Positions 3,413 through 8,278 of a stretch of 8,278 nucleotides of DNA are shown one piece after another. The notes below the pieces were generated by a model. It was not told the DNA's origin, did not search any database, and saw only the letters and a program-made list of their open reading frames with translations. How positions within the stretch are numbered: position 1 is the stretch's first letter; each line of letters begins with the position of its first letter. A program made the position numbers and the translations under genes. Source of the stretch: a candidate division WOR-3 bacterium (GTDB taxonomy: Bacteria; SDB-A); NCBI GenBank assembly GCA_016926475.1, contig JAFGON010000064.1, forward strand, positions 1 to 8,278, written 5' to 3'.

Positions 3413-4831
3413 CTACTTTACTACCGTCGTTTTGCAGGAAACCGTTCTCGAAGGGGAATTGAAGAGGATGAAATACACTCCGGGCCTGAAATTTGAAAAT
3501 TCAGCCCAGCGGCCTTCCAGCACTGCTTCTCTGAAAACAACCCTTCCGGACTGGTCTAAAACGCTTAGGTTGCCGTTTTCTTCCGCGTAAAATCTGAACC
3601 CTCCCAAAAAGGTCTGGACTCGATTGAAATCGTCCCCAAGAACAGGTTCTCCTTCTTCCACGCAGGTCATGACGAAATTGTCCCTTACGGCACCAGATGT
3701 GTCGATTACCGTCACGTTGAGTGAATTCTGACGGACTTCTATCAGGCAGAAATGGTGAAAGTTTCCAAAGTGCCCCTGGACTATGCTCCCTCCGCCGCCC
3801 CCCGATATAAGTTGCCTCACGCAGGTTATCGTGTCGGGAAGAATTCTTCCGAAAAAATCGCTGTTGTAGAGGTGTATGTGCCCTGCCATGTCGAGAATAA
3901 CTCCGTAGTCTCTGAGAACTTTCCAGTACGCGTCCCTCTCAGTTACATGTTCTCCTAGAAAACCGTATTCGTCTCCGGCGTAAGACCACGCGTGTTCATG
4001 GTGAGCACTTATCTTGAAACGGGAGGAAATACCTGAGAGGTTTTGTTCCAGCCAGTTCCTTTGGTAGATGTCAATGACTTCTGGGTTGTCGTAGCAGTCG
4101 GAGTCGAGGATGAAAACCCGCGCGTCTCCCCAGTCGAAATAATAGACCAGTTCGTCGTAAAACTGCGGCACGGGAGAATTGTGAGGCATCTCGAATTCAT
4201 CGACTAAAATATCTCCGCCGTTGAAATTGTGGTACCAAGTGTTTACGTCGTGATTTCCAATAGTCATGAACACAGGCCTGTTGTATGCTAAGGTGTCTGT
4301 AGCCGCTTTAAAATTATCCCACTGCTCTCTCACCTCGCTCTGGTAATAGGAATTATGGACCGCGTCTCCCAGAAAGACGACGAAATCAGGGTCATAAGAC
4401 ACCATGTTGATTACATTGGCTGTGAGGGCGGGAGAAATTCCTCCTGAGCCGGCGGTGCAGTGGGCGTCGCCGAAAACGGCGAAACTGAAAGTTTCGCCGG
4501 GATTTGCCGGCATCCGGAAAGTCCGGACGGGTGTAAGGGCGGAATCCTGAGCGTTGAACGCGGTCACGGAATATTTCCATGTTCTCGCGCCGGTGAAGTC
4601 TCTGAGAACAGCCAGATGGAAAGTGTCGGGCGTCGAGCAATAAACGGTCTCCGACATAGCTCCGTTTTCTTCGCCATACAGAACTTTCAGAGAGCACAAA
4701 GCGTCTGTCTCAGCGATTATGAAAACCGAATCTCTGAAAACGCTTGATATCCTCGGACCATGGACAAAAGAAAGCGAGCCGATTTCCAATGAGTAAAGGG
4801 ACAAAACAAAAAAAATGTAAGCCAATTTCAT
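3413..4831 (-). CDS. Secreted calcineurin-like (purple acid phosphatase type) metallophosphoesterase with T9SS tail
   Basis: A 472-residue exported phosphoesterase. An N-terminal signal peptide (about 1-20, MKLAYIFFVLSLYSL...) is followed by a fibronectin-like domain (about 24-108) as in purple acid phosphatases, then the metal-binding motifs in family order: GDAH (Asp122, His124), GDAV (Asp156), GNHD (Asn193, His194), SAHHE (His277/278) and GHIH (His318, His320). All expected two-metal ligands are present, so it should be active; the substrate cannot be told. Residues about 400-472 look like a T9SS type A sorting domain: FRFYAEENGNLSVLDQSGR..., FRPGVYFILF, and a basic last strand ending TTVVK. 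By family knowledge this implies outer-membrane export with removal of the tail. The start has no Shine-Dalgarno site but a TATAAT box 6 bases upstream. The gene leads the block with the MscS channel and lepB. Confidence 0.9.
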   Translation of the reverse strand: MKLAYIFFVLSLYSLEIGSLSFVHGPRISSVFRDSVFIIAETDALCSLKVLYGEENGAMSETVYCSTPDTFHLAVLRDFTGARTWKYSVTAFNAQDSALTPVRTFRMPANPGETFSFAVFGDAHCTAGSGGISPALTANVINMVSYDPDFVVFLGDAVHNSYYQSEVREQWDNFKAATDTLAYNRPVFMTIGNHDVNTWYHNFNGGDILVDEFEMPHNSPVPQFYDELVYYFDWGDARVFILDSDCYDNPEVIDIYQRNWLEQNLSGISSRFKISAHHEHAWSYAGDEYGFLGEHVTERDAYWKVLRDYGVILDMAGHIHLYNSDFFGRILPDTITCVRQLISGGGGGSIVQGHFGNFHHFCLIEVRQNSLNVTVIDTSGAVRDNFVMTCVEEGEPVLGDDFNRVQTFLGGFRFYAEENGNLSVLDQSGRVVFREAVLEGRWAEFSNFRPGVYFILFNSPSRTVSCKTTVVK

Positions 4832-5493: not shown

Positions 5494-6246
5494 ATGAAAA
5501 GAATTATTTTAATAAGTGTTTTCGCAGCCGCACTGATAGTTTTCGGCTGCACAAAAGACGACAACCCGACCAACCCAGGAGGCGGTACTGCCTCAGCTCC
5601 AACTACTGTTACAATTACAGCAACATCAGATGGTTATGGTGTTGTAATTAGCTGGACTGCTGTCGCAAGCGCCGATTCTTACCAGGTAGAATACCCCGGT
5701 TCAAAAGGCTATGCAGTAGTGACGGGTCTGAGCTACACCCACAACGATCCCACAGAACTCGGCGCATACAGAGTTAGAACATTTGTCGACAACGACACGA
5801 GCGGCTGGTCATCTTCGGTATCTACAGCTCCTTATACAGGATCAGGTCAATTAGGGGAATGGTCGTACTCATCTCTCGCTTCTTGCTATTACTGGACTAC
5901 AACAGGAACAGGAACATCAATATCGAGGTTAGATCCTAACGCTGCCACTTTAACAGATATTTTTTGCTACTACGACAACAATGAGTTGAACATAGTCAGA
6001 GCAAACCAAGCTCCTTTAAACGGAACAAGACAAGTTTCAATAGCTTATTCAACAGACCCTTCTTATGTTGCAAAAGCACCCTCTACTGGTTATGCAAATT
6101 ATCAACCTCTTAGCGTCAATGGTTATTTCTGGGTTCATAACGGAGACTCAAGATATGTAAGAGTCAGGGTTACCATTTTGGATACTTATGATTTTGATTT
6201 CTCTTGGGTATATCAACCCGTTTCTGGATTCCGTTACGTAGATTAA
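5494..6246 (+). CDS. Lipoprotein with a fibronectin type III-like domain
   Basis: A 250-residue predicted lipoprotein, probably on the cell surface or in the periplasm. The signal peptide MKRIILISVFAAALIVFGC puts the lipidated residue at Cys19 (the lipobox has an unusual Phe at -2). A short Asp/Pro/Gly linker follows, then a fibronectin type III-like domain (about 36-112: VTITATSDGYGVVISWTAV..., DSYQVEY, GAYRVRTFVD). Residues 115-250 form a second, probably beta-rich domain that I do not recognise, rich in Tyr, Ser and Thr, with two cysteines (131, 158) that could pair. No catalytic motif is visible; binding or scaffolding is the likeliest role. Shine-Dalgarno AAAGGAG (5481-5487) overlaps the preceding stop codon, so the two lipoproteins form one operon, closed by the hairpin at 6261. 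Confidence 0.85.
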   Translation: MKRIILISVFAAALIVFGCTKDDNPTNPGGGTASAPTTVTITATSDGYGVVISWTAVASADSYQVEYPGSKGYAVVTGLSYTHNDPTELGAYRVRTFVDNDTSGWSSSVSTAPYTGSGQLGEWSYSSLASCYYWTTTGTGTSISRLDPNAATLTDIFCYYDNNELNIVRANQAPLNGTRQVSIAYSTDPSYVAKAPSTGYANYQPLSVNGYFWVHNGDSRYVRVRVTILDTYDFDFSWVYQPVSGFRYVD

Positions 6247-6260
6247 TTTGAGTTTTTTTA

Positions 6261-6288
6261 AAAGGGCAAGAATAATCTTGCCCTTTTT
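6261..6288 (+). terminator. Rho-independent terminator of the lipoprotein operon
   Basis: AAAGGGCAAG (6261-6270), loop AATAAT, then CTTGCCCTTT (6277-6286), a perfect 10-base stem continuing into TTTTTCATTTTTT. It starts 14 bases after the stop codon. In the minus direction the stem is followed by TTTTAAAAAAA, so it is at best a weak terminator for leftward transcription. Confidence 0.92.
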
Positions 6289-6299
6289 CATTTTTTCCA

Positions 6300-6416
6300 T
6301 TATTCGAAAATCGTGAATTTGCCCTTGTGAAGAGTTTTTCCTCCGGTGTTTATTACTAAGAAGTATGTTCCAGTAGAAATGTCTGCATAAGTTCCCCAAC
6401 TGTAGAGTATATCATA
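6300..6416 (-). pseudogene. Orphan C-terminal fragment of a T9SS-type sorting domain
   Basis: Read on the minus strand, the frame ending in the TAA at 6300-6302 gives a tail whose recognisable part begins about 6413: DILYSWGTYADISTGTYFLV, then INTGGKTLHKGKFTIFE and stop. The 'STGTYFLVI...G' strand followed by a basic final strand is the usual end of a T9SS type A sorting domain; compare FRPGVYFILF in the phosphatase of this window. The frame is open only back to the stop at 6471-6473 and holds no ATG, GTG or TTG codon, and its upstream part overlaps the end of abiEii in another frame. It is therefore best read as the surviving 3' end of a larger secreted-protein gene whose front was lost or displaced when the AbiE segment arrived. 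A longer frame in the +1 register covers the same bases but encodes nothing recognisable. Confidence 0.6.
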
Positions 6417-6418
6417 TT

Positions 6419-7363
6419 CTATTTTGACAACACATTTCTCAATTTTGAAAGTAGTTCGGTTTTTTTTTCTTTATTCATTCTTCTTATATTTGCCAGTTTC
6501 CATTGAACCGCAGGTAATTTCTCTATAACGTCAATCCCTGATAGATTCCAATTTGGTTCACCTTTTTTAAAAGTTAATAAAAAATCTTTTTCGTTCTCTG
6601 TCAGACTTCTACGAATAATATGCAACAATGATCTACGCACTTCTACTAAGTCCTCATACGATACATCGTCCTCTGTCATTCCCTGGAATTCCCCTTCAAA
6701 TACGTTATTAAATTCACTAAAAACAGGATCAAGTAATTCGTGAATAGGCCGATTATGGCTAATTAGGTTTACTATGAAAGCTTTTCGTATCTGTTCTGTG
6801 ATACCTTCAAGATTCAACAGCTGTTTTATGTCGTAAAAATCCCGAGGATGTTGTCTATCTAAAGCAGCACAGATTTTTCCTCCGAATATATCAGCAAAGG
6901 ATGCAGTGATGGCTTCAAAGGAAAGTTCAAAAATATTTTGTGCCTTTTTACATAGTATATGTTTTTCTACAGGAAAGACAGTACCTCTGTTAACTAAATT
7001 TGGTTCAATTTTTATCTGTACATCAGTTTGTCTAATAAAAATTTTGTTAGTCATATTGGGATCAGTAATATGCCCTTTTTGAATACTTATACCAGGGATC
7101 CTGCGTTCAATATTTTCAGCTATTCGCGATAATGAGGATTCGATTTTTACCAAAGAAATATCTCTTGATTCTACAGGCAGATAAGTCAAATCTATATCTA
7201 CGGATAATCTGGGCATGTTCCTGAAAAAGAAATTTATTGCACTGCCACCCTTTAGTGCAAACACTTTTTCTTCAAAAACATAAGGTAAAGATTGCAGCAT
7301 TAATCTTGCTTGCTTGAAGAATTTTTTCTTCATTGTACTGCTATTTTTCACTTTGATTTCCAT
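6419..7363 (-). CDS. abiEii: AbiEii-type nucleotidyltransferase toxin (type IV toxin-antitoxin)
   Basis: A 314-residue member of the AbiEii/AbiGii nucleotidyltransferase toxins, which in phage abortive infection and toxin-antitoxin modules block growth when the antitoxin fails. The core signature is present: ALKGGSAINFFF (residues 36-47) followed by LSVDIDL (Asp56, Asp58), the GS...DxD metal and nucleotide site. VQIKIEPNL (115-123) supplies the likely third acidic residue, and GGKICAALDRQHPRDFYDI (161-179) is the typical Lys...Arg-Asp-x-x-Asp box. All expected catalytic residues are intact. The C-terminal half is helical and less conserved. The ATG at 7363 lies inside the antitoxin gene (23-base overlap), with no Shine-Dalgarno site, so translational coupling is likely; Met11 at 7333 is an alternative start. 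The segment is visibly more AT-rich than the leftward genes. Confidence 0.88.
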   Translation of the reverse strand: MEIKVKNSSTMKKKFFKQARLMLQSLPYVFEEKVFALKGGSAINFFFRNMPRLSVDIDLTYLPVESRDISLVKIESSLSRIAENIERRIPGISIQKGHITDPNMTNKIFIRQTDVQIKIEPNLVNRGTVFPVEKHILCKKAQNIFELSFEAITASFADIFGGKICAALDRQHPRDFYDIKQLLNLEGITEQIRKAFIVNLISHNRPIHELLDPVFSEFNNVFEGEFQGMTEDDVSYEDLVEVRRSLLHIIRRSLTENEKDFLLTFKKGEPNWNLSGIDVIEKLPAVQWKLANIRRMNKEKKTELLSKLRNVLSK

Positions 7364-8117
7364 TCGGGACAGATATCAGATATTTTACATCGAGAACTCC
7401 TCCTTTAGATATAACACGTTTTCCTTTGCCGAAATCAATTCTTGCTGTATTAAGATGACTCACCCAGGGTTGATTAAACTTTTCAGCAAAATACATAAAC
7501 AGGCGCTTTACTTTTACTGAAACTGTTTTTTCCAATAGCCATTGAACAAGATCCGGTCTTAATGTTTTCAATCCTTCCATCAAAAGACCAGCATGCTCGA
7601 ATGTCTCTGTTTTATCTACTAAAAATAACACTTCCATTATAGCCATTTCATTTGACGAAATAGTTATTGAATATTCTCCCATTTCTATTTTTGACAATCC
7701 GATTTTTTTTTCGTAAGGGAAACAGTTAGTAAAAGTATATTTCAAAGACGATCCCCTGTTATACTCCATAAACCATTTTGGCAAATATCTGGACAATCCA
7801 AATATATAAATGGGATGTTTTTCATTAAAAGGAATAAAATGTCCATAACCATGAAGTTCTAACGCACTACGGGCACCAACATGAACATTGAGTTTTAATT
7901 GTTCTTGTAGGGCATACAAACCACTGGTCCAATCAATTTTGTCACCTGAACGCATATAAGCTCCATGACCTATAGATTCAATCCATGCTGATTTTTCGTA
8001 AATTTCTATGAGTTGACGATAAATTCCTTGCTCTTTCAGCCATTTGCTGATTGCGACAGTATTTTTCGGCCATATTTTGAGAAGTTGGTTTAATTTTCGG
8101 GGATTTTGTCTATTCAT
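7341..8117 (-). CDS. abiEi: AbiEi-type antitoxin and autorepressor (type IV toxin-antitoxin)
   Basis: A 258-residue protein, first gene of the pair. The N-terminal ~60 residues form a winged-helix-like domain (AISKWLKEQGIYRQLIEIYE, then IESIGHGAYMRSGDKIDW), the usual DNA-binding part of AbiEi antitoxins. Next comes the family's HVGARSALELHGYGHFIPF motif (79-97), and then a C-terminal domain (from ~125) thought to counter the toxin. Studied AbiEi proteins repress their own operon by binding repeats in the promoter and neutralise the toxin without forming a stable complex; here the promoter carries matching repeat copies (8119-8130 and 8168-8196). The ATG at 8117 lies 8 bases after a -10 box with no Shine-Dalgarno site, so a leaderless or near-leaderless mRNA is likely. 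In the hand-counted line 7621-7680 only 17 of 60 bases are G or C, against 25 of 60 at 4201-4260, which suggests horizontal acquisition. Confidence 0.85.
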   Translation of the reverse strand: MNRQNPRKLNQLLKIWPKNTVAISKWLKEQGIYRQLIEIYEKSAWIESIGHGAYMRSGDKIDWTSGLYALQEQLKLNVHVGARSALELHGYGHFIPFNEKHPIYIFGLSRYLPKWFMEYNRGSSLKYTFTNCFPYEKKIGLSKIEMGEYSITISSNEMAIMEVLFLVDKTETFEHAGLLMEGLKTLRPDLVQWLLEKTVSVKVKRLFMYFAEKFNQPWVSHLNTARIDFGKGKRVISKGGVLDVKYLISVPNGNQSEK

Positions 8118-8118
8118 A

Positions 8119-8130
8119 ATTTACAATTAT
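8119..8130. promoter_or_regulatory. Possible AbiEi operator half-site over the -10 box
   Basis: ATTTACAATTAT matches 11 of 12 bases of the inverted-repeat arm ATTTACATTTAT at 8185-8196, in the same orientation. It covers the -10 box and start region of the abiE promoter, where a bound repressor would block RNA polymerase. It is AT-rich, so chance is not excluded. Confidence 0.4.
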
Positions 8131-8153
8131 GACAAAAAATAAACTTTTGTCAA
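8126..8153 (-). promoter_or_regulatory. Promoter of the abiE operon
   Basis: On the minus strand a perfect TTGACA (8148-8153), a 16-base spacer, then CATAAT (8126-8131) preceded by TGT, giving an extended -10. The -10 box ends 8 bases before the abiEi ATG, so the transcript should start at or next to the start codon. Confidence 0.8.
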
Positions 8154-8167
8154 GTTTAAAAAAAACG

Positions 8168-8196
8168 ATAAATGTAAATTTATGATTTACATTTAT
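8168..8196. repeat. Perfect 12-base inverted repeat upstream of the abiE promoter
   Basis: ATAAATGTAAAT (8168-8179), spacer TTATG, then ATTTACATTTAT (8185-8196): both arms match perfectly. It lies 14 bases upstream of the -35 box. Two readings are possible. It may be an AbiEi operator, supported by the third arm copy at 8119-8130. Or it may be the terminator of a leftward gene ending near 8198, supported by a run of eight T on the minus strand (8158-8165) two bases after the stem. The stem has only two G:C pairs, which weakens the terminator reading. Confidence 0.75.
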
Positions 8197-8197
8197 A

Positions 8198-8278
8198 TTA
8201 ATAAATAAACTCTACACAAAACCCCTCTTTTAAAAAATTGAATAATTTTTGGCAACAGTTTGATTTTACTCTTCTAAT
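8198..8278 (-). other. Possible 3' end of a further leftward gene cut by the window edge
   Basis: One minus-strand frame is open from the window edge to a TAA at 8198-8200 (26 codons, ending KEGFCVEFIY); the other two minus frames are stopped within the first 12 bases. The length is too short to tell from chance in AT-rich DNA, and I recognise nothing in the peptide. The inverted repeat with its T run directly after the stop is what would be expected behind a real gene end. Confidence 0.15.

What the first reader, a model, noticed from the sequence alone, without database searches (positions are those of the whole stretch)
6300..6473. Broken T9SS sorting tail directly behind the AbiE module
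The last ~35 codons of a T9SS-type tail survive without any start codon (the frame has none back to its upstream stop at 6471) and partly overlap the toxin gene's end. This points to the toxin-antitoxin segment having landed in, or replaced, most of a secreted-protein gene, so the left junction of the acquired DNA should lie near 6416-6420. The two bits of evidence, a recognisable tail and a lack of any start, are independent.
Basis: partly seen in the sequence, partly recalled or inferred. Interest (0 to 1): 0.6.

Follow-up and report, generated by a model that had tools for sequence, protein, structure and literature searches.

The report
Secreted-protein gene stub beside AbiE
A toxin-antitoxin pair sits exactly where all but the last 34 codons of a secreted-protein gene have vanished; sister species lost the same gene by other routes, so this is an ordinary case of gene loss next to acquired DNA.

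Summary
The fragment is real. The minus-strand frame 6404-6300 encodes the last 34 codons of a T9SS-type tail (TIGR04183, 18.3 bits, E 0.0017 over all NCBIfam models, but below the 23-bit cut-off). A same-genus genome without AbiE (G001) carries the full gene at the same site: about 510 codons, convergent with the lipoprotein gene and split only by an insertion sequence with a 9-bp target duplication. Homology to that gene stops at window 6400-6404. The AbiEii stop is at 6419-6421, so the left junction lies in about 6401-6418; the "overlap" with the toxin gene is only chance open frame. GC falls from about 0.44 to 0.34 there, and the gene's first 355 codons are absent from the assembly. However, a third species (G002) has no AbiE and yet keeps only a decayed stub of about 66 codons, so AbiE is not needed for the loss. 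Whether AbiE cut the gene or landed in an existing stub is open, because the right junction lies in an assembly gap (contig end 8278). AbiE itself is an ordinary complete type IV module. A candidate 12-bp inverted repeat at its ends was rejected.

The parts
6300..6404 (-). 3' remnant (last 34 codons plus stop) of a T9SS-tailed secreted-protein gene, no start codon
   Evidence: TIGR04183 18.3 bits, E 0.0017; homologous to the end of the gene in G001, alignment reaches window 6404
6401..6418 (.). left junction interval: homology to the gene stops (6400-6404), AbiEii stop codon at 6419-6421
   Evidence: pairwise alignment with G001; AbiEii homologues end at the same residue
6419..7363 (-). AbiEii toxin (314 aa), complete, motifs GG-x15-DID and RDFYD present
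   Evidence: PF08843 E 9e-33; PADLOC AbiEii E 9e-112 over full length; alignment A1
7341..8117 (-). AbiEi antitoxin (258 aa), overlaps abiEii by 23 nt
   Evidence: PF11459 E 1e-40, PF17194 E 4e-27; PADLOC AbiEi E 4e-77
8126..8153 (-). predicted abiE promoter TTGACA-16-CATAAT
   Evidence: 11 of 12 consensus matches; consensus match only
8145..8219 (.). inverted repeat (two 35-nt arms, 71% complementary, 5-nt spacer) at the abiE promoter, candidate AbiEi operator
   Evidence: layout like AbiEi operators in PMC3985639 and PMC7319586
6260..6287 (.). terminator-like hairpin between the convergent lipoprotein gene and the remnant, also present in G001 and G002
   Evidence: conserved in alignments
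5494..6246 (+). lipoprotein-like gene that marks the left side of the site; homologues in G001, G002 and G003

Best explanation
Window 6300-6404 is the dead 3' end of a gene of about 510 codons for a T9SS-exported protein that lay, convergent with the 5494-6246 lipoprotein gene, between it and a comEA-like gene in the genus. In this genome a probably foreign, low-GC AbiE type IV toxin-antitoxin segment now abuts the break at 6401-6418. Shown: a gene at the same site in G001 that is intact but for an IS, absence of the first 355 codons from this assembly, a complete AbiE module, and a GC step. Inferred: AbiE DNA entered by non-homologous recombination or deletion-insertion and removed or displaced the rest of the gene. 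The remnant makes no protein, and AbiE works as an ordinary bacteriostatic anti-phage or addiction module.
For: The G001 gene reads open for about 510 codons across the IS empty site (9-bp target duplication TTTTAAATC on both contigs) and is 44% identical in its N-terminal part to an intact 517-aa protein in G003. The N-terminal 355 codons are absent from G000. The remnant has 20/28 codons identical to G001, more than any of 706 windows of two neighbouring genes (maximum 16), so the loss looks recent. AbiE is absent from G001-G003. GC is about 0.34 in AbiE against 0.40-0.50 beside it. The comEA-like gene that should follow starts 21 bp into contig C85.
Against: G002 lost the same gene without AbiE, so the gene may already have been broken. 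The right junction is not in the data. No target duplication was found and no integrase is in the window.
Confidence: 0.6

Rival explanations
1. The gene had already decayed to a stub, as in G002, and AbiE later settled in the non-essential remnant without causing the loss.
For: G002 has no AbiE and keeps only about 66 codons with an internal TAA, followed at once by the comEA-like gene. G001's copy is independently broken by an IS. The gene is evidently dispensable in this genus.
Against: The window's stub has no lesion and is close to G001's sequence at synonymous sites (20/28 identical codons against 6/28 for G002), so it was probably intact until recently. The G000 and G002 stubs end at different points.
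Confidence: 0.28
2. AbiE simply inserted into the gene, and the 5' part still exists in the assembly gap between contigs C64 and C85.
For: The window is a whole contig ending 161 bp beyond abiEi; the comEA-like gene is at the edge of C85, so the gap is unread.
Against: No trace of the first 355 codons in the assembly, rated 100% complete; nothing at 8118-8278 resembles the gene.
Confidence: 0.1
3. The tail is a chance open frame.
For: The profile score is below the curated cut-off.
Against: Homologous at nucleotide level and in synteny to the end of a real gene.
Confidence: 0.02

Closest known systems
T9SS type A sorting domain (TIGR04183 / PF18962)
   Same: C-terminal GTYFLVI...GKTLHKGKF motif, last residues of the frame, in a genome with 65 TIGR04183 matches elsewhere
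   Different: only 23 of 72 profile positions left; no signal peptide, no start codon, below cut-off
AbiE type IV toxin-antitoxin module (AbiEi/AbiEii, PMC3985639)
   Same: gene order, overlap, polymerase-beta-type nucleotidyltransferase motifs, inverted repeat at the promoter
   Different: nothing notable; overlap is 23 nt rather than 4 nt

Membership tests
T9SS type A sorting domain protein | C-terminal match to TIGR04183 above cut-off | tested here: not met
   18.3 of 23 bits, profile 48-70/72; the fragment is a remnant, not a member
T9SS type A sorting domain protein | homology to the tail of a larger secreted-protein gene | tested here: met
   G001 gene of about 510 codons, signal-peptide-like N-terminus by eye only; G003 517-aa homologue, TIGR04183 18.5 bits and PF13860 29.6 bits
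T9SS type A sorting domain protein | full-length gene with start codon | tested here: not met
   no ATG/GTG/TTG in frame
AbiE type IV toxin-antitoxin system | AbiEi antitoxin followed by AbiEii nucleotidyltransferase toxin | tested here: met
AbiE type IV toxin-antitoxin system | hG[G/S]-x15-DhD and +DxxD motifs of AbiEii | tested here: met
   KGGSAINFFFRNMPRLSVDID and RDFYD in alignment A1, motifs from PMC3985639
AbiE type IV toxin-antitoxin system | toxicity neutralised by antitoxin; phage resistance | not testable with these tools
   needs expression assay
transposon-like cassette with terminal repeats | terminal inverted repeats beyond chance and target duplication | tested here: not met
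   TGTAGAGTWTAT pair at 6401/8216 scores no better than unrelated pairs at several other AbiE loci and lies inside the operator repeat; no direct repeat longer than 6 nt between the two edges. The true right edge is not in the data.

The most novel reading that the evidence does not exclude
The site is a spot where one dispensable T9SS-exported surface protein is repeatedly removed in sister species, by an IS, by deletion and by AbiE arrival, perhaps because the protein serves as a phage receptor, so that its loss and AbiE would be two layers of phage defence at one locus.
Probability: 0.05. Interest if true: 0.5.

Novelty: new member of a known kind. Interest (0 to 1): 0.22.

Why it matters
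It gives a near base-level left junction for an acquired AbiE module and a comparative case of a secreted-protein gene broken in three congeneric species, apparently by three routes. It also cautions that a gene stub beside acquired DNA is not proof that the acquisition destroyed the gene.

Tried and rejected
Terminal inverted repeats: TGTAGAGTATAT (6401-6412) and ATAAACTCTACA (8205-8216) looked like element ends (4 of 300 shuffles reach the score), but equal or better scores occur at several other AbiE loci with unrelated sequence, the motif is at no other AbiE 3' end, and the right copy lies inside the probable AbiEi operator repeat. Target duplication: none found. Continuity of the window's right end with the comEA-like gene start of G002: not better than shuffles. 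8118-8278 elsewhere in the four genomes: no match. The G001 fragment first looked frameshifted; it is an IS insertion instead. Species tree from shared genes to order the losses: 67% support, G003 not recovered as a clean outgroup, not usable. First scan of genome contigs with AbiEii alone found nothing. The organism could not be named with the tools at hand.

Full report
Observation. The minus-strand frame from 6473 to 6300 is open and lacks ATG, GTG and TTG. Its end, YSWGTYADISTGTYFLVINTGGKTLHKGKFTIFE, matches TIGR04183 at E 0.0017 over the whole NCBIfam library, 18.3 bits, profile positions 48-70 of 72, below the 23-bit cut-off. The genome has 65 TIGR04183 matches at E <= 0.001, so it is a T9SS genome; none has nearly the same tail (next best 56% identity).

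The gene it came from. The window is a complete contig (C64) of a 106-contig genome. Three relatives carry the 5494-6246 lipoprotein-like gene and none carries this AbiEii. In G001, contig C65 holds, next to that gene and convergent with it, a reading frame ending DISSGTYFLVINSGGKTLHKGKFAIFE. Contig C9 holds the comEA-like gene and, beyond it, the 5' 355 codons of the same gene. The two contigs end in the two halves of an insertion sequence with ends CACTAGTGTCCTA and a 9-bp duplication TTTTAAATC; the same 13-bp end occurs ten times in G001, always near contig edges where sampled, and other pairs show matching 9-bp duplications. Read across the empty site the gene is open for about 510 codons, homologous to an intact 517-aa protein in G003. 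That protein has weak TIGR04183 (18.5 bits) and FlgD_ig (29.6 bits) matches at its C-terminus. So the window fragment is a true gene remnant.

The break. Alignment of the window with G001 runs from the shared terminator-like hairpin (6260-6287) through the tail to TACAG at 6404-6400 and stops there. The AbiEii frame ends at 6419 and its last residues align with the ends of other AbiEii proteins, so the toxin is not truncated and the junction lies in about 6401-6418. The claimed overlap of tail and toxin gene is readthrough of an unrelated frame. GC falls from 0.44 (5601-6100) to 0.34 in AbiE, which fits acquired DNA; AbiEii relatives of 44-54% identity are scattered over many phyla.

What happened to the rest. 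The first 355 codons are not in the G000 assembly, rated 100% complete. The comEA-like gene, which should lie on the far side, starts 21 bp from the left end of contig C85, so by synteny C64 and C85 are neighbours (inferred) and the right junction lies in the unread gap. G002, without AbiE, keeps only about 66 codons of the gene with an internal stop, and comEA follows directly. The gene is thus broken in all three congeneric genomes. The stub in the window is lesion-free and unusually close to G001's (20/28 identical codons; best of 706 windows in two neighbouring genes is 16), while G002's shares 6/28 with either. That favours a recent loss in the window's lineage, separate from G002's, and so favours AbiE arrival and loss being one event, but does not prove it. 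The same excess similarity could also come from recombination with a G001-like donor; the adjacent lipoprotein gene is instead closer to G002 (65% against 53%), so the region may be mosaic.

AbiE. Antitoxin and toxin are complete, with the catalytic motifs described in PMC3985639, a good sigma-70-like promoter and a promoter inverted repeat of the kind AbiEi binds (PMC3985639, PMC7319586). No special mobility signal was found; the candidate terminal repeat was rejected.

Verdict. Observation confirmed with corrected limits; interpretation partly supported; ordinary biology, modest interest.

Noticed in passing
L087, L092 and other G001 contig edges; L083, L085 in G000: An insertion sequence with ends CACTAGTGTCCTA and 9-bp target duplications occurs at several places in G001 and at two contig edges in G000, where it probably breaks the assemblies.
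   Followed up: partly
window 6300-6383 and L067 487-570: The last 28 codons (stop included) are far more alike between G000 and G001 (20 identical) than any stretch of two neighbouring genes, while the adjacent lipoprotein gene is closer to G002: possible recombination mosaic.
   Followed up: partly
L126 2014-2058 and 3908-3952: In an Oligoflexia contig the AbiE operon is flanked by a 45-nt, nearly perfect inverted repeat (TGTTCCAAATTTGGAACATTTTGTCCCGAAAATGGGACTGAAGCG), which could be the ends of a small mobile cassette carrying AbiE.
   Followed up: no
window 3413-4831: A calcineurin-like phosphoesterase also carries a weak T9SS tail (22.1 bits in the genome search, just under cut-off).
   Followed up: no
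window 8115-8131: The predicted -10 of the abiE promoter ends 8 nt before the AbiEi start codon, so the transcript may be nearly leaderless.
   Followed up: no
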